Shown one piece after another: positions 6,200 through 63,580 of a stretch of DNA of 64,000 bases; position 1 is the first letter of the stretch; each line of letters starts with the position of its first letter. The stretch covers positions 30,588,527 to 30,652,526 of the forward strand of contig OX485808.1 in assembly GCA_950295325.1 (NCBI GenBank). Reading direction: 5' to 3'. The position numbers and the translations under genes were made by a program. The stretch comes from Polytrichum commune. Taxonomy: Eukaryota > Streptophyta > Polytrichopsida > Polytrichales > Polytrichaceae. The notes under the pieces were generated by a model, which was not told where the DNA came from, did no database searches, and was given only the letters and a program-made list of their open reading frames with translations.

Positions 6200-7128
6200 A
6201 CTATATTCACCGGAGAATGCTTTGGCCAAACAAAAGAAGTACCAATTCAAAGAGGTACTATACAAGGGGACACCCTGAGCCCATACCTCTTTATTATATT
6301 CCTAGAACCACTACTAAGGTGGCTACAAAAAGACAAGTATGGATACACCCTCGGGGGGGGGGCAATGTGTTAAAAAATTAAGGATATAGGTGCGAACAAC
6401 CACTATTTTATAGGGGGTATTACTTTCAATTCTCTTCTTTTTTTCACATACTATCATTATGTAAATTTCTACTTTGGATTAATAGAAAAATGGCTTGCAT
6501 TACTTATAATTCCAAATTACCTATTATTCCATACCTTATAGTATTTTAAAGATGTCCAGTGTCATTTTTGATACCCTATATTACTCCTTAAGTCCATTTA
6601 TAATTTTTAGCCCCCATGTTTTTAAAATACCCTATCATTTGTTCGCACGTATATTGCTACTCCAACCAATGACTACCCCCCCCCCCCCGAGGATACACCT
6701 TTGTAACATCTAATTTCACAATCAACTCTACATCATACGCAGATGATCTAGCCACCGTCACCAACAAACTCACATCAATACAACCACAACCAAACAAAAT
6801 AGATAAATATTGTGAATGGACAGGTATGGACCTTGGAATATCAAAATGTGCAGTCACAGGATGCCCTAACAAATCCAAACTGAATCAAATAACATTCAAA
6901 AGACAAATACAAACCGCCAACATTACATACCGAAACAAGACTGTCCCAGTGCTACACCAAAACGAACCATATGTATACCTAGGCATTCACCTAGTCCCTT
7001 CCCTCAAATGGAAGATACAAATACACATCACAACCACTAAGTTAATAAGCCAATGTAGCCAATTAGCAAACTGCCCAACAACAATCAAACAAAAAATTAG
7101 CATAGTAGATAAAGTAATCAGAGCTTGA
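6200..7128 (+). pseudogene. LINE reverse transcriptase, interrupted by a DNA transposon
   Basis: From about 6218 the frame reads IFTGECFGQTKEVPIQRGTI, then QGDTLSPYLFIIFLEPLLRW, the typical non-LTR RT block around the fourth conserved motif. The frame is cut at 6350 by an inserted element. It resumes at 6700 and reaches the catalytic YADD box at 6736-6747 (YADDLATVTN), followed by GISKCAVTG and YLGIHLVPSLKWK, the usual blocks after the active site. Subtracting the insertion and one target duplication joins the two halves without a frame change. The frame ends in TGA at 7126-7128. The residues upstream of 6200 are frame-shifted or lost. Confidence 0.85.
6350..6691. mobile_element. Small non-autonomous DNA transposon with CTC-G(n) ends, member 1 (342 bp)
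   Basis: The left end reads CTC followed by 10 G (6350-6362), the right end 13 C followed by GAG (6676-6691). It is flanked by a perfect 8-bp direct duplication GATACACC at 6342-6349 and 6692-6699. Both subterminal regions carry ATATA then GTGCGAACAA: on the plus strand near 6384-6400, and inverted near 6637-6656. The interior is AT-rich with no ORF. An 8-bp duplication is typical of hAT and some other cut-and-paste superfamilies, but a CTC-poly(G) end is not a terminus I recognise. Confidence 0.9.
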
Positions 7129-9218
7129 ATCGTATACAGTTTTTATGCAGTCTCATATTCACTGGCCGGAATCATAAAATTAGATAAAAAATCATAGCAA
7201 TGCAAAAGAAAATATGCGGACTCCCCAAATGCACATCAAATATGGTCACTCAATTACCCCATGAGCTGTTTGGAATAGAAGCATTTTCACTAAAAATGCC
7301 TACCTTAGATGTATTGGGGAACAACTCAGAAATGCACTAAATGACAAAGGTAAACTTGGAACAATCTACAGAGGGCTTACACACTATATACTTGCCAAAC
7401 ATGGAGGAGCAAAAAATATACCTAGAATCAAACACCACGATTGTAACCGATCACCCACTACTAGAACAATATACCTTATAAAAACAACAGGTGGAGCCCA
7501 CCTCAGAAGCCATTTAGAAACATTCCCTCTTGAAGCAACACCACTCGAAAAAGAATGGCACAAACTATCCACAACACCACCTCCACAAAAAATCTCCAAT
7601 CAAAACCTAAAACACATACACAAACTACTCTTAGAGAACATATATGACATAAAACAACTCACTTTAAGAGATGGCACACACATGATGTCCCATACTGAAT
7701 ATATAAACTACTACAAAAAACCAACACATATGCTAAAACAAACACTAAAAATAGCAAAACAACTATTTTGCCACCCAGGATGCAATAAAAATTGCCTAGA
7801 GTCATGCCAAAACCATTACCCACCACACACACTAAAACAAGAATACATTATAGCAAGACACAACATAGAACCTGTAAACAATGACACCCACACACATCCA
7901 CCATTCCCAATACACCCGCCCGCACCAATACACATAATAAACAACCCAACAAAATACCCTATACACTCAATATATAATAGACCACTATATAGTACCAACC
8001 AAAGATAAACATAAAATCATAAAAAAACAATACACATATCTATGCCAATGGGTAGTACCCAATGGTACAACTTATAACAAAAAACTCGCGCAAAGAGAAT
8101 TATTCCCTTATAACATCCCAAGAGTCATACAACATAATACAAACATAATACTCACATACTTCACTAAGAAAAAACACACAATATACGAAAATATAATACG
8201 AGGAAACGATTTCTTTACCCAAAACAAAGACCCAAGACACATATCCCCACCCCTAAACATTCCCCTTGTAAATATATCTACACAAGAATGCAACCCGGAA
8301 AAAGATATCAACACTAACACAAATAAAATTCAAGTACAAGGTGAAAGCGCCCACATATACGACGAAACAGGAAAACACCTTATAACCATTCCACGGGATA
8401 GACTCACATGGCTATGGAATCAATACAACCGAATGCTACATCAACCACACGACCTAATACCCCCCACCCAAACATTCGAAATAGAAATAACCTGGCTATA
8501 TCAACGATACAAACACAAAAACCCAAAGAACGACCCACTCAAAAACTCACACCACACCTTACCCAAAGTATTACTAGACTACATTACAACGTCCTTTAAG
8601 ATTACCCATTCCTACTTCTCCTCACCAGTCACATGCTCCACTCAATTAACAAAATTATGCTCACCATTTCCCAGAGATAAAATATTTGGATCCATAGGTA
8701 CTGCATTCTCACATAAATGGCACGGAATAGGTTATGCCCACCCTCACAATGAAAGAGAAGCCCAAGAAGCCATCCACTGGGCTAGGTTAGCAGCTAAACA
8801 CAACCCAAACTCCATCACAATACTCACCATCCCAGACTTAAACTGGTATCAAAACCCCACCTCATACATAGGCCCCTTCCCAGACACACATGTAATCACC
8901 CATATACCAGCAGACACCACTAAATACGAGGAACCAACAAAACCACCAGAACTCAGTGAAACACGAATAGAAACACTTGTTATAAGAATCCTATGCGTAC
9001 ACCACCAACTCAATAACATAGGTACATCCGAACAAATGAACACCATAAAAAACATATGCAATAACCTTGACATAACACGCATAACCACGCAAATAACCCC
9101 TCCTACCCCACAAAATATAGAAGTTAACATAAGCAAAAAAATGGAATGCCCTTACAAACTTAAGCCCAAACATACACTATCACAACACAACCCCACCAAT
9201 CCCAAACTACGAAAATGA
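7129..9218 (+). pseudogene. LINE linker region with an unidentified conserved-looking domain
   Basis: After the RT stop the frame continues with HELFGIEAFSLKNAYLRCIG-like sequence, typical of LINE RT thumb regions, and goes on through 8010 with interruptions. From about 8350 to 9000 the translation is clean: HIYDETGKHLITIPRDRLTW, then HTLPKVLLDYITTSFKITHS, then FGSIGTAFSHKWHGIGYAHP, EAIHWARLAAKHNPNSITIL and PADTTKYEEP. This is not RT, RNase H or a known LINE endonuclease. I recall similar strings in proteins of other streptophyte or algal LINEs, with a faint resemblance to PCIF1-like adenine methyltransferases, but cannot verify it. No intact methyltransferase NPPF/DPPY motif is visible. Confidence 0.55.
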
Positions 9219-9246
9219 AACACCCCTTAAATTCCCACCCCAATAC

Positions 9247-9780
9247 TGCTTCTACATGGACGGATCCTTCAACCCACCGAAAAAAGTAGGAGATACTTGG
9301 CTAAGGGAGGAAGCTGGTTATGGTATATACAATCAAGAAAAAAATATCAAACTTGCAATGAGGCTACCATGCTTACAAAATATTTTTAGAGCAGAATTAA
9401 TGGCCATACACCACGCCCTTACAATAATAAACAATGACTTCCCAAATGAACCCACCCATATCTTCACAGATTGTCTCAATGGCCTATATGTGATAAAAAA
9501 CCAAATAAAACACCCCACACTACATAACAACCACCCGGATAAAACCATCTTAGAAGAAATTGTTAAGTTCCTTGTCCACAGAATGCAACCCACAACACTA
9601 TGTAAAGTCAGAGCACATGCAAACATTAAGGGAAACGAAGAAGCCGACGCACTTGCCAAAGAAGGAACAGCTATGGAACACCTCAACGCTCCCAACCACA
9701 TGAATTTGCCCACTCAACCCCATACTACTACCAAAGAGATGAATGGCCATCAATGGACTCAACCCCCGACAAAGGACCCA
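9247..9780 (+). pseudogene. LINE RNase H domain
   Basis: The four acidic RNase H residues are visible in order: FYMDGSF (first D), FRAELMAIHHAL (E), HIFTDCLNGLYV (second D) and GNEEADALAKEG (last D). A HAN motif (RAHANIKGNEEAD) matches the His-containing loop. The spacing fits type-I RNase H of LINE and LTR elements. It is part of the LINE rather than a host RNase H gene: it lies in line with the RT and the C-terminal finger and has the same A-rich composition. Confidence 0.85.
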
Positions 9781-34453: not shown

Positions 34454-35869
34454 AAGTGGGTCCCTCTGAAGTAATTCAGGCTTTTGATATTGATTTTGGG
34501 GTCAAAGTTTCAGAAAAGTAAATATACATGCTCTAATAAAATCGCCTACGTTTTCAGCTCCGGTAATAGTGGCGGGGGCCCAAACTCAAAGAGGTGAGCG
34601 TCTACCTATAGCCAAGTTGGGTTGGTAGTATGTTCAACCAAATAAAATATGTGAATTAGATATGCAACAGTCAACTTGTCATTGTACATTCCACAATGAG
34701 GGTTGGTTTACACTATCTCATGATTCCCAAGTTACGATTTCCTACATGGCGGTAAAGAGTTGGGACTTACTCTTGAATGTGGGTTGGCCAAAGGTGTGAC
34801 CCAACTCCAAGGGTAAGTCTTGACCCGGGTCCCAAAAAAGAACTTAACAATGTACATGACGAAAATCATCAAACACTTGACATTTTACATGACAAAACTC
34901 CCCAAAATGGGAGTATCAACTTCAAATTGATAAATATTTTCAGAAGAGGTAATTTTTAGCAAAAGACTTCTTGACTTGTAGAAATTGGAGTTATCTATTG
35001 CTTATAAAAGCTTGATTGTAAGAAATCATCAATGGTTATCCTCAATGTTTCAGATATGTTTACAGTGAACAACATATTCTAACTAGTCTAGCACTCGAAG
35101 AACATAAAATGCAACCCCCTAGCTGTCTATGGTGTTTATAATTTTAACCCTTCATTTAATTTTTTCTTCAAAACAATGAGAGTTATGTTTACGATGTTTT
35201 TTGAAATCAATTACTTCTAAATACAATACAGGATGAATAAAAATTGATTTATAACCATATGGAGGTGATCCTATCATGGTATATTATAATTTCTTTTGTC
35301 ACAATTCTTATAGGACCGTTGAAATTGTACTTCTATAACACAGGATTAAATGAAAAAGAAAAAGAATTGTCGGTGGCTTTGCCCCGATGTGAATGTAAGC
35401 CCGTTCTCTTTGCATTGATCATGGCTTACCATGATGCAATACATGGCATATTTTCATCCTTTTGAAAGATGAACTCTATGGAAGCATATCCAAATTAAAA
35501 GTAGAACAATTTATACTGGTGGTGTTGCTAGTGTCTGTTAGCGGTCTAGTCTTCTTTAATTTAGTATAAGGGTTGTGAGGTATTTAATGTCATTTTCGTG
35601 GTTGGATTTCATTAGAGGTTGTTGAGCTTTGCTATTTAGTGTTTGTGTATGACAGCTCTCATGCCGATAGTAATGGTAATTAGGGGGAATACTTTCCATT
35701 GGTTAGTTTTGAGTGTCTATCAATGGGTCATATTTCTTGTGCTTGGTTGCGAAGGCCAATTCTGAATATTGGTCATGGTAGTATGTGATTCTATGAATTC
35801 TATTGTGAGTGATGGGGAGGAGGTTAGTAGTGTTTGGTTTTGGTTGGGGGCACATAGCAACATATTTTT
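34454..35869. other. No gene seen
   Basis: AT-rich spacer. Possible 5' remains of the following MULE-like pseudogene could lie in its last few hundred bases, but no motif supports this. Confidence 0.4.
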
Positions 35870-38800
35870 TTGCCAGTCCAGAGACAAAGTATTTGTCTTC
35901 AAATGTCCGTAGATCTTCAAGAAAGTGGTGTGGACCTTGTTAAATGTATGCAGGTTGGAGGAGATATGGAAAATTCATGGATAATGTTTAACCATGTCAA
36001 ACGTCTAAATGATTGGACCACCCCCGCGTGCCATGTGTACAATAGCAAGTATTGTAAGATGTTGATTATTGTCTCGGGGGGGGGGGCACTCCCTTGTATA
36101 TTTTGCATACACCTGCGATAATGACCTATTAAAATGGGGGCTATTTACCTATGAGAAAGGATTATAAGGGATGCTAATTTTGAAATAATGGTAAATTGTT
36201 GTGATTATTTGCACCCTATTGGTAATTATAAATTCTTGGATGGTTGATTTTATGGTACCCTATATTACTTATATGTAATTTTTTCCCCTGATTGCCTCCA
36301 TTCCTTAAAGTGTATGATACAGTAGAATTCTCGTTAGAAGCACGTGTACAGAGTAAGAGAAACAAACATTTACTAGGGTTTAGGGTTCAGGGTCACACTG
36401 AAGTCCGGGCAAAGCAAAACACTAAACATTAACAACAAAAGATTGCAATTACATGTCATTAAGCAACACGAGCCAACGAATAAAAGTTGTGTTGGATAAC
36501 ACAGTTAGAAACCTTGAGGTCTCAGGGAACAGGCCAGCCACATGTGTCTCAAAGTCACATTTACAAGGTTTGCAGAAGCCCTACAATTGATGCCTTGATC
36601 TTCCAATCCTACACATTGGAGGAAAATCCCATGCCATGCAAGCAAAATCCACCTAAACTAGCTAGGCTACCATTTACACATGTGCACTACAAGAAAACGT
36701 GAAGGTAGCCAACTGAAAACCAAGTAAACTCTGTTGGAAGTAAGAGGAAATTGGAAATGGCGATGAGGTTGCAAAATTTATCGGTTGATAGCCCCCATTT
36801 ATCGGCATTTTTTTTTCATTTATGCAATTTCCAAAAGGTCTAAAGTGGGGCCGGTTTTATATTTTGGTGGCAAAGTATTTAATTTTTTAAACTATCGCTT
36901 TTTTCCATGCTATTTTATATGTACCACTTAGGTAATTTAATCATATTTTGTCAAATGCTATATTACATATAATCATGTTTCACAATCCCAGAGCACCCTA
37001 TACTACATCTAATAATTTTACAAATTTTACGCCAAATTTTCATACAAGACCCTATATTTTATGGCACGTAGTTCCTACATTTTTCGCCAGTGCCCCCCCC
37101 CCCCCCCGAGATTATTGTGTGTTATGACATGCAATCTCAAGATGGCGCAACTCGACTTTTATTCTGGGAAAATTTGAACTCTGTCATGGCGGAAAATGGT
37201 GTGTCAAACATAAATTTCCAAGGTTTTATGGCAGACAGTACGCAGGCCAATTGGATTGCGGTGAGAAATATGTTTGGTAAAGGTGATCAAACTTTGCCAA
37301 TGTTGGGTCGCAAGCGCACTTGTATTTTTCATTAGTCACAAAGTTTGGATAAGGTTACACAGAAATACATCACGGTATCTTTACAATTTCAACACAAACA
37401 TCTATGCAACGACTACAAGGATGCAAAAACAATGGATGAAGCCGAAACTAAATATCATGTCATTCGTTCATGGTGGTTGTCATATGGAGCTGCCACATAG
37501 GAAGGCATTCTCAGGCTTTCTGAGTGGTTGGGTTTCTGGCACCTCCATTTTATGTAATGGGGTGGTCGTATGATTCTTGTGAGTGCATCACCACTTTGTT
37601 TTTTGTAATATGTTTTTTTTATGAATTTCCATGGTATATGAAGTTTACTATAATTTGTGTGATGTTTGTAGGAGATGACTATGAATGAATGTGCAAAAAT
37701 GCTAACATGTAACCTTGTAGAGACGGTGCACAACGAGTGGCTCCAACAATTCGGAAATAAAATTACTTGTTTGTACAAAGCGACAGTGGACGATTTGATT
37801 CGTGCATTCATGCAGATTGCAAATTACATGTCGTGGTTGAGAGGTGGTTCTGCTGGTAAAGGCCTTGATACCGCGTCCTTGATTTTAAATGTTGCTGCTA
37901 TGTGTGGAGATCCAAAACTATTGGCAGAGGCCATGATATACTATCTAGGGGTGGAAGATCTCAATACTAGAAATTGTGCTCTGAAGGGTTTTGAGCTTTG
38001 TGGATCTACCAGACGGAAGCTTAATCTGTCACCAGGTGCAGATTGCGATTCACATTGATTTGACAAAGTGAACATTCAATTCCTCGCCCATATACAAGAG
38101 CTAAAATGGCATGCATAGAGGAGTATTCAAATTCTACAGAGCATGGTGTGGCACAAACCACATCCCTGTTAGAATTTGATTGTCCCCCTTCCCATTGGCA
38201 CATTGCAAGATTACCACCCAACTCTGGCAAAAGATATTGGGCCATGCAAGCCAATACCAGGGTCTTTGCAACGCCAAAGTCAGGATGGGAAAACATGACA
38301 CCCTTGCTCCTACGTACAAGGGATTGAAGAACAAGTATCGCTCCACCAACAGTGTGGAGTACAAGTTTTGATTTTGCCGTGACGACATCAAGCATTGTGT
38401 AAATGGTAGCAGGGAAAAAAAAACAAAATAAAAACGTATTAGATTGGCTTGTAGTACCCAACACATGGTCGGTGAGGATAGGCACCAATCTCTTAAAGCA
38501 TGAGGCATTGGCACTCGAAGACATTGGGTTCCAATTGCAGTAGAGGGAGGTTCTCTCTCCTCGCCGCAGGCTTTCCACAATCACCACACTTCCAATCCCT
38601 CGAATTGGTTTCCGTGCTTCACTAAACCCGATGTCCACCCAACTTTTAGGTTTGGAAAGACAGTGCACCGTAATCTAGTAGCACCAATGGCAGAACACAA
38701 AAACAAATGGGAGAGCGTTGGGCTCACGGTCGGTTATTTATGTGGTTGGAGTAACTACCATTCCATATTCTGGATTTGGATAGTTAATCAACATTGTCTC

Positions 38801-60887: not shown

Positions 60888-61695
60888 TGTGATGACCAAT
60901 TTGATAGTCTACAGTAATAGTGTCTTTGAGACATATATATATAGACATTGTGATTATTGTTGTTTTTTAGTGGGCAAACATTTAGAGGTAGGCATGTGCC
61001 TATTGCAAACAAGGGGATCTCTTAATAGAATCAATAATGCACAATCAACTTGTTGAAGTTGAATTGCTACTTCAACGACAATGACTTTGTCTCAACCAGT
61101 CATGCTAAGTGTATCTAGTTTGACATGTTTGGTTTGGTATGTTGATGAGCGGGCATGGCTTAAATGTCTAGCCATGGCCTAGATCAAGATAATTTTTTTT
61201 TTCATGATTTAGAGTTATTAGAGGAAAATATCGTGCAGTAATAGTTGTAAATCTTTGATTATGTTGGTTGATTTCATTAATGTACTTCTTGAAGAAAAGG
61301 TGAACTCTATAGTTCAACTTTCAGTTTTGAAATTTTGTTCATGGAGTTGTGTGCATAGAAGGAAAACATTGTGTCTTGACATTGTTAACAATGTGAGTTG
61401 TCATGTGGAAAAGGCTAAAGCATTGAAGGAGAATTGTCATTGTAGAATCGACTATAACTATATGCTTTCAATTAAGCATATTGTATCGATTTCAATTTGA
61501 AGAGGTTGTGGTTGGTATGTCGAATATCACTCACAAGCTTCATACAAATATGAACATTAGTGGTTCTAAGTTTGCTTAGCTTGAGAACGTTTGTAGTTTT
61601 ATTCTCTGCAAAGAATAAAATATAAAATTTGTGTCTTGCATATTGGTATATCACATAATTATGTTGATTGTGATGTTTTGTGTATGATTTTCCAG
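60888..61695 (+). other. Upstream region or first intron of the kinase-NBS gene
   Basis: AT-rich, ending in a good 3' splice site (TGATTTTCCAG at 61685-61695). An open frame from ATG 61261 to 61500 has no recognisable domain and could be a first exon or chance. The gypsy element ends only about 0.8 kb before the kinase exon. Confidence 0.4.
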
Positions 61696-63423
61696 GAACA
61701 TATGCAAATTATGACAAACATACAAGGCCTACTAGAGGAAGTTACAAACTTCCCTAAAATAGAGGAGAATCCAAAGGTTTTGAATAGTAAGCAATGCAAG
61801 AATTTGTTGGTGAATATTCAAAATGGTGTGGAAACAATTCAAAGCATGATCGATGGTTCCTATAGCGCGGATGTGTTCCACCAAGTAGAGCAAAAGATGC
61901 TTGGTATTATGAAGAAAGCAAGGCATATGGTTGAAGAATGTTGCAAGGTTGGTGATTGGTGTCGAGTGGTGGTAATGCAATTGAATAACAAAGAATCCTT
62001 CAGAGAACTTCTCTTGGATTTTGAGTATTGTTTCCACACAATGTGCGAAATATTTTGCCAATCTTTTCCCAGTCGTGAAGTTGAAATCCGAGATATGGAA
62101 AAGTCTACAACATTCTACCCAACATCCATTGATGACGTTGAGCAAGACCAAAATGCAATATTTGAACGACTATCCATGGAGGTGAATTTGTGTAGAATTG
62201 ACAATTGCAAAGATCATTGCATGCTTTTGCGATATTTAATGGAACGAATAACGGGGTTGCAAAAGGTTGCGGGTGGTGAATTAGATAGCATTGTCTTTCC
62301 ATATATTTATGAACCCCCTAACTATGGGAGGAGACCTAAGCCTTTGGGTAAGGGGGGTTATGGGAGTGTATACTCAACCCAATGGTTAGGATTTGAAACT
62401 GCTACAAAGGTTATCAAAGTTGAGAACCCTGAGCATGAGACAATCGTTCGCAAAGAAGCTAGTATTTTGGGCGGATTGAATCATCCCAACATCATCAAGT
62501 TTTTTTGGTGTGGCTTAGCAACAGATGGTGATGCACATGGAGGAGAAAGTCAAGGACTTGAAATCGTCATGGAACGAGGAATTATGAGCTTATCAAGTTT
62601 TTTGGAAGAAGGTGTGCTCACAGAAGCCGTGGTAATTGACATTATGATACAAATTGCAAGTGGAATGTGTTATCTTCATGACATGAAAGTGGCGCATCGT
62701 GATTTGAAGCCCGATAATGTTATATTGACCTCAAGGGGTGGCTCAACTTTGAAACATGTGCATGTGAAGATACTTGATTTTGGGATTTCAAAGATTGAAG
62801 TGAAAAACTCCCCACAAGTGCCTACAAATGGAGGTTGTTTTGGTACTTGCGGATATATGGCACCTGAAGCTCATACACAACGAAGTTCAGAGGTGGATGC
62901 ATTCAAAACGGATGTATTTAGTTTTGGCATGATGTGCTACGAGATTCTTTCGAACAAGAGAGCTTACACTGGAAAGATCTTACGCGACTATGTGAGGTTT
63001 TTGGAAAACAAGAGACCGGAGTTACCCAAAACTTGTTCTAAAGATTTGAAATCCTTGATACATGAATGTTGGTCTTCGGAACCTTTGAATAGGCCCACAT
63101 TCCTTCATATCTTTGAGAGGTTGAGAAAAGTCAAAAGTGATGCAATGCTCAAGGTTGCTAGTGATGTGAGAGTGGCTAGAATTTTGCACAAATCCACAAC
63201 TCCTAGCAATTCTATTGAATATCCAAAGCGATGTTGGACAATGGTCAAACAAAAACTCCATGCATTCAATATATGGGCAATTCTTCTGTTGTGGCAAATG
63301 TTTATCACCTTTGCTCAATGGTTGCTATGTCACATATCAAATTTCTTGGAGGCATTTTCCATTTCATCATCAAGTGCTCAAGAGAATTCAAACATCACAA
63401 CATCAAATAAAATAGCTCATCAG
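61696..63423 (+). CDS. Kinase exon of a kinase-NB-ARC (PK-NBS) resistance-type gene: DUF1221 plus TKL kinase
   Basis: Starts after a 3' splice site, with a first internal ATG at 61702 (an ATG at 61684 would serve only if that site is unused). The N-terminal part (QCKNLLVNIQNGVETIQSMI, DWCRVVVMQLNNKESFRELL) matches the DUF1221 region that precedes certain plant kinases. Kinase elements are all intact: glycine loop LGKGGYGSV (62344-62370), Lys of VIK (62416-62418), HRDLKPDN (HRD at 62695-62703), DFG (62776-62784) and APE (62860-62868). After the kinase comes a hydrophobic stretch (WAILLLWQMFITFAQWLLC, about 63274-63330), possibly membrane-associated. The exon ends CATCAG|GTAAGC at 63423. The joined protein would sense or signal pathogen attack; such kinase-NBS fusions are known from mosses. 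Expected catalytically competent. Confidence 0.88.
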
Positions 63424-63580
63424 GTAAGCATTGAATGAGGTCAACCTTCATTGTCAACTTTTAGTAGGGGTCTAAAGGTTGTGCATTGTGACTTTATTGG
63501 AAAAATTTGGAATTTAGTGGTATTTTTCTAGTGAGGATTGTTGGATGGCAATGAAATTTTTCATTTGGCATTTTATGCAG

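What the first reader, a model, noticed from the sequence alone, without database searches (positions are those of the whole stretch)
36065..37118. Second CTC-G(n) member, also with a perfect 8-bp duplication and frame-restoring empty site
1038 bp, CTC-G(11)-CACT at the left and AGTG-C(15)-GAG at the right, flanked by ATTATTGT. Subtracting it makes KMLIIV run into CYDMQSQDG of the MULE-like pseudogene with no frame change. Two independent insertions with the same ends make this a family. G-run lengths vary (10/13 and 11/15), and the longer member holds unrelated middle sequence, possibly captured DNA.
Basis: seen in the sequence. Interest (0 to 1): 0.9.

Follow-up and report, generated by a model that had tools for sequence, protein, structure and literature searches.

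The report
Short jumping element with poly-G ends
This is one inserted copy of a family of short 'passenger' DNA transposons whose two ends hold a run of Gs inside an inverted repeat; the insertion is real, its interior is a patchwork of family forms rather than DNA that this copy captured by itself, and the enzyme that moves the family has not been found.

Summary
Window 36073-37110 is 1038 bp, CTC-G(11)-CACT to AGTG-C(15)-GAG, between perfect ATTATTGT repeats. In 12 of 12 aligned relatives (of 38 hits) the interrupted frame runs through the insertion point without a gap. The ends define a genome-wide group: 43 exact matches to one end pattern, 0 to its reversed control. With ends set by anchors only, 21 of 30 elements have an exact 8-bp duplication, 4 one mismatch; empty sites exist for three other insertions. 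The middle is not private: 406 bp belong to the ~1.3-kb form of family A, the right arm has the ~0.8-kb form's extension, and 85 bp between start with a CACTA-like 13-mer. Another mosaic exists (L038). I read it as a non-autonomous cut-and-paste transposon reshaped by internal deletion or template switching. Transposase and superfamily are unknown; KDZ gave no match, under a control that rang nowhere. The window copy is one insertion, later segmentally duplicated. I found no description of such ends.

The parts
36065..36072 (.). target-site duplication ATTATTGT, left copy
36073..36090 (+). left terminal inverted repeat CTC-G(11)-CACT
36073..36276 (+). family A left arm (207 positions in the L form), shared by the L, S and mosaic forms; about 72% like family D
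36279..36684 (+). first 406 bp of the interior of the ~1.3-kb L form, 97.3% identical to L001
36685..36769 (+). 85 bp found in no other fetched copy except the segmental copy L046; begins CACTACAAGAAAA, which resembles a CACTA-transposon end (motif recalled)
36770..36858 (+). right-arm extension that the S form has and the L form lacks; 21 bp missing here relative to the S form
36860..37110 (+). family A right arm, shared by the L, S and mosaic forms
37089..37110 (-). right terminal inverted repeat, read inward CTC-G(15)-CACT
37111..37118 (.). target-site duplication ATTATTGT, right copy
35858..36072 (+). interrupted coding frame of a repeated protein family, left part (ends KYCKMLIIV)
37120..37332 (+). 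the same frame, right part (CYDMQSQDG...)
6350..6691 (+). family B member, 342 bp, duplication GATACACC, G10 and G13 ends

Best explanation
A non-autonomous DNA transposon of the terminal-inverted-repeat kind. SHOWN: fixed ends (CTC, a run of G, CACT, then asymmetric arms of about 205 and 250 bp), insertion with duplication of 8 bp of target, empty sites, at least 78 other scored family A places (38 L-type, 40 with the S interior), sequence-related families A-D, only short open frames in the three A copies examined. INFERRED: a transposase supplied in trans recognises the arms and ends, cuts the element out and inserts it at an 8-bp staggered cut without a target consensus. INFERRED: this copy is a mosaic made when gap repair stopped early or jumped template. 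It kept the left arm and 406 bp of the L-form interior, then 85 bp resembling a CACTA end, then the long right arm of the S form. Either all forms are internal deletions of one unseen longer parent (order: left arm, L interior, S interior, extension, right arm), or L and S copies exchanged pieces.
For: Ends: 43 exact matches versus 0 for the reversed pattern. Duplication: 21 of 30 exact and 4 of 30 with one mismatch when ends were set by arm anchors alone, against 0.09% (<=1 mismatch) for shuffled pairings; in the other five my outward rule overshot, and the nearer end gives an exact repeat. Empty sites: the B element inside the A copy of L024 is absent from 18 other A places that span the site at 94.7-99%, 9 of them without any gap and 9 with 1-2 gaps whose position I did not look at; L037 is empty in L023 (96.7%, no gap); L033 has an empty relative next to it (90.9%, one gap). 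Window target: frame continuous in 12 of 12 aligned relatives. Copies: 1486 first-look candidates, 40 scored; S interior 248 candidates, 40 scored, all at 96% or more. Youth: 18 L-type copies differ 1.06-2.59% from their consensus. Mosaic; second mosaic L038 joined near a GAGGT that both forms have. Coding: only short frames in L001, L022 and the window copy.
Against: No autonomous copy or transposase was found, so cut-and-paste in trans is inferred. No longer parent holding both interiors was seen; only 40 of 1486 and 40 of 248 candidates were scored and the letters of most of those places were not read. Six of 42 end-bearing places gave no partner end. Only two mosaics are known, too few to choose between deletion and exchange. 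The identity of the 85 bp rests on a 13-base motif; the match is exact, but 24 of 100 shuffles of the window hold one at up to one mismatch.
Confidence: 0.85

Rival explanations
1. The interior is host DNA captured by the family (Pack-type element).
For: L and S interiors differ completely between nearly identical arms; the S interior has 53% G+C against 29-31% in the arms, and the L interior 39-40%.
Against: The 406 bp of this copy's middle are common to the L form at 98-99%, so this copy did not capture them itself. No donor outside the family was recognised; only the best 40 of 1486 and 40 of 248 candidates were scored. Only short frames in three copies.
Confidence: 0.25
2. All A forms are internal deletions of one longer, perhaps autonomous, parent that holds both interiors in a row.
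For: L038 and the window copy both run left arm, L interior, then S interior tail or extension, then right arm, in that order.
Against: No such parent was seen; the window copy also carries 85 bp absent from the other fetched copies apart from its segmental copy. Joins were not tested systematically for microhomology.
Confidence: 0.45
3. Exchange between existing L and S copies (gene conversion or template switch in gap repair) made the two mosaics.
For: Both forms are present in many copies, and the arms of L001 and L022 are 100% and 98.8% identical.
Against: Does not explain by itself how the L and S interiors arose, nor the 85 bp.
Confidence: 0.4
4. An assembly or sequencing artefact at homopolymers.
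For: Homopolymer lengths are prone to error; run lengths vary.
Against: Arms, duplications and empty sites do not depend on run length; the segmental copy L046 has the same duplication and is 99.7% identical over 1666 bp.
Confidence: 0.02

Closest known systems
MITEs and other non-autonomous TIR transposons (for example the Ds group of maize)
   Same: Short, no transposase seen, common ends and subterminal arms, different interiors. [quoted passage not shown]
   Different: Ends are CTC plus a homopolymer of G; superfamily not assigned.
hAT superfamily
   Same: 8-bp target duplications are usual for hAT (PMC12730594, passage).
   Different: The recalled target preference nTnnnnAn is not seen: T at position 2 in 14 of 40, A at 7 in 9 of 40. 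The recalled CA/TA-type terminus is not met. No hAT search was made.
Merlin superfamily
   Same: 8-9-bp duplications (PMC8101967, passages).
   Different: Merlin ends begin with GG (same passages); these begin with CTC.
KDZ (Kyakuja-Dileera-Zisupton)
   Same: 8-bp duplications in Zisupton and in a Dileera family (PMC12730594, passages and section 11).
   Different: No KDZ match in this genome (the 14 control genomes did not ring either, so absence is not shown).
Mutator-like elements and Pack-MULEs (recalled)
   Same: Variable interiors between conserved ends.
   Different: Long terminal inverted repeats and mostly 9-bp duplications are typical (recalled); here the inverted repeat is about 20 bp and the duplication 8 bp.

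Membership tests
TIR-order DNA transposon, non-autonomous | terminal inverted repeats at both ends | tested here: met
   CTC-G(n)-CACT at both ends of the window copy; ends of other copies
TIR-order DNA transposon, non-autonomous | target-site duplication of constant length | tested here: met
   8 bp: 21 of 30 exact, 4 of 30 with one mismatch, 5 of 30 with mis-set ends; no exact 7-, 9- or 10-bp repeat
TIR-order DNA transposon, non-autonomous | precise empty sites | tested here: met
   L024 inner element, L037, L033; window target, at protein level
TIR-order DNA transposon, non-autonomous | an autonomous partner with matching ends | tested here: inconclusive
   none recognised among 42 end-bearing places; of the two longest resolved elements, L023 (2212 bp) and L026 (2263 bp), five frames were scanned against Pfam: one weak RING-finger match (E 0.044, under its cut-off), no transposase
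hAT | 8-bp duplication with nTnnnnAn preference (preference recalled) | tested here: not met
   length met; preference not seen
hAT | hAT transposase in the autonomous partner | not tested
   no autonomous partner; no hAT family search was made
Merlin | ends begin GG | tested here: not met
   ends begin CTC; definition from passages of PMC8101967
Merlin | IS1595-type transposase (PF12762) | not tested
   the request did not complete
KDZ | KDZ transposase (PF18758) in the genome | tested here: inconclusive
   0 matches, 0 candidates; control rang in 0 of 14
P element | P-type transposase (PF21787) | not tested
   requests did not complete
Pack-type (gene-capturing) element | interior traceable to a host gene | tested here: inconclusive
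   no donor recognised among the 40 scored candidates each; requests for the 85-bp piece did not complete

The most novel reading that the evidence does not exclude
An undescribed lineage of DNA transposons whose recognition end contains a homopolymer G tract that changes length between ends and copies, tolerated or even needed by its transposase (for example read as a four-stranded or otherwise distorted G structure that pairs the two ends), with 8-bp duplications and no relation to known 8-bp superfamilies.
Probability: 0.2. Interest if true: 0.65.

Novelty: new variant of a known kind. Interest (0 to 1): 0.42.

Why it matters
A transposon end with a built-in variable G run (4 to 19 at freely observed ends) asks how a transposase finds an exact cut site beside a sequence that slips. 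Because copies are young and many have clean 8-bp duplications and empty sites, the run-length spread and the mosaic interiors make internal deletion and template switching measurable copy by copy.

Tried and rejected
Capture of a private middle by this copy: rejected, the 406 bp are the common L-form interior. KDZ as driver, suggested to me by a dioxygenase-like frame in the family C element L026: PF18758 gave nothing in the own genome. That frame has no Pfam match and one chance-level match among solved structures (E 3.4; none for the alignment); its relative P0002 has no Pfam match, P0001 and P0002 no NCBIfam match, and P0002 one weak PHROG of unknown function (E 0.23). The AlphaFold model of P0002 is useless (mean pLDDT 31.7). 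hAT target preference: not seen. Merlin ends: not met. L009, whose end has no partner and no repeat within 9.5 kb: ten peptides, seven of them from L009, gave no Pfam hit at E<=0.1; unexplained. No description of such ends was found in the paper library: full-text search for the letter strings (13 papers, none about a transposon by title or abstract start in the listing) and word searches (listings); most subscription papers are not held.

Full report
CHECK. The window holds four CTCG8 sites, two per element, against none in 100 shuffles. Element 36073-37110 has CTC-G11-CACT and AGTG-C15-GAG ends and ATTATTGT on both sides. The own genome (408 Mb in 64 contigs) has 43 exact matches to CTCG8N5CACT and none to the reversed pattern. 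That pattern fixes the G run at one end, mostly to 12 or 13, so it undercounts, and it misses the window copy itself.

FAMILY. I fetched all 43 matches (42 places). In 36 of 42 places a partner end with an 8-bp repeat of at most one mismatch was found; six (L009, the first end in L014, L015, L028, L042, L043) gave none. Because the repeat helped to choose the partner there, I repeated the test with ends set only by arm anchors: of 30 elements (both window elements among them), 21 have an exact 8-bp duplication, 4 one mismatch and 5 four to six mismatches; shuffled pairings give 0.09% with at most one. The five failures (L014, L019, L030, L035, L038) are cases in which my outward rule ran into letters of the duplication; the nearer end gives an exact repeat. 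L019 and L030 share flanks and count as one insertion. No exact repeat of 7, 9 or 10 bp was seen.

EMPTY SITES. With flanks joined in a script, 36 elements were compared with all held DNA. The family B element in L024 sits inside a family A copy; 18 other A places span that site at 94.7-99%, 9 of them with no gap and 9 with 1-2 gaps whose position I did not look at. L037 has its empty site in L023 (96.7%, no gap); L033 has one next to itself (90.9%, one gap). Other spanning hits were of 68-83% identity and I do not count them. For the window copy no empty DNA site was found in held DNA; its joined coding frame has 38 relatives, and in 12 of 12 that I aligned the frame runs through the insertion point without a gap.

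SUBFAMILIES. A (window 36073; L form about 1.31 kb; S form 812-855 bp in L020, L022, L025, L033, L035), B (about 340 bp; window 6350), C (259-280 bp and 2.2 kb), D (about 0.6 kb). Arms of A and D are about 68-77% alike over 130-210 bp; shorter stretches of B and C arms match A at 70-76%. The six-base motif CCCTAT occurs four times in each of three A elements counted, always in the arms, against 0.65-0.82 expected; 2-4 of 500 simulated sequences reach that. One D element has four (0 of 500), D_L021 and C_L026 have none. It may be a protein-binding repeat (inference).

THE MIDDLE. Against the L form, the window copy matches to element position 612 and again from 787; against the S form it matches the left arm and again from 698. 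So 36279-36684 is L interior, 36770-36858 is the S-form extension lacking 21 bp, and 36685-36769 is in no other fetched copy except the segmental copy L046. These 85 bp start with CACTACAAGAAAA, the recalled end of CACTA transposons; it is the only hit in the window at up to one mismatch (0.32 expected at that tolerance, 24 of 100 shuffles have one or more) and none of the 45 loci then held has it. L038 (862 bp) is another mosaic: left arm, part of the L interior, tail of the S interior, extension, right arm. L039 (1198 bp) and L007 (1282 bp) carry deletions.

GENOME-WIDE. The whole element as query gave 1486 first-look candidates, of which 40 were scored. Two places match it end to end: the window and C6:30198335-30199370. 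The second has the same flanks and duplication and is 99.7% identical over 1666 bp, so it is a segmental copy and not a second insertion. The other 38 scored places match from about 4 to 612 and from 787 on, as the L form does. The S interior gave 248 candidates; the 40 scored are 96-100% identical over at least 249 of 251 bp. How many of the unscored candidates are real copies is not known. Eighteen L-type copies differ 1.06-2.59% from their consensus, which suggests recent spread.

MECHANISM. Shown: ends, 8-bp duplication, empty sites, many copies, mosaics. Inferred: transposase in trans, 8-bp staggered cut, interior change by incomplete gap repair or template switching. No transposase was seen: the three A copies examined (L001, L022, window) have only short frames. 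The 2.2-kb element L026 carries a 167-aa frame with eight relatives in public data and an HxD...H pattern that reminds me of 2OG-Fe(II) dioxygenases (recalled). The frame has no Pfam match; another L026 frame has a weak RING-finger match (E 0.044, under its cut-off); the relative P0002 has one PHROG of unknown function at E 0.23. That frame led me to test KDZ transposons, which in fungi can carry TET/JBP dioxygenase genes (PMC12730594, passages and one section): none found here, with a control that rang nowhere.

KNOWN OR NEW. What it works like: a MITE-like or Ds-like non-autonomous TIR transposon. Membership in a superfamily is open: Merlin ends are not met, the recalled hAT target preference is not seen, KDZ is inconclusive, the P and Merlin transposase requests did not complete, and hAT and MULE transposases were not searched. 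I found no description of CTC-G(n) ends in the paper library (listings only). The host looks like a land plant, possibly a moss, from the gene content and from seven large contigs (lengths); this is recalled knowledge and was not tested.

Noticed in passing
window 6350-6691: Family B element (342 bp) interrupts a reverse-transcriptase-like frame just before STSYADD; by reading, the flanking frames (..YGYT and FVTSNF..) fit together across the GATACACC duplication.
   Followed up: partly
L026 7239-9501: A 2263-bp family C element with exact duplication GATTAACA carries a 167-aa frame (8782-9285) with 8 relatives (P0001-P0008) and a dioxygenase-like HxD...H pattern; a stop codon separates it from a frame upstream; no family match.
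   Followed up: partly
L009 9501 (minus strand): CTCG13CACT end with no partner end and no 8-bp repeat within 9.5 kb; either a broken end or a very long element.
   Followed up: partly
window 35773-37434 and G000:C6:30198035-30199700 (L046); L042, L043, L044: Segmental duplications within C6:30.2-30.7 Mb: the window stretch at 99.7%, L042 and L043 at 99.95% over 4000 bp, L044 at about 93-95%.
   Followed up: partly
L010 8209-8466: An L-type family A copy is interrupted by about 256 bp flanked by a 5-bp repeat of the L interior (positions 76-80).
   Followed up: no
window 61597-63438: A 613-aa frame that looks like a plant protein kinase (recalled).
   Followed up: no
A elements, both arms: The motif CCCTAT occurs at fixed arm positions of A elements and in some B, C and D elements, a possible binding repeat.
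   Followed up: partly
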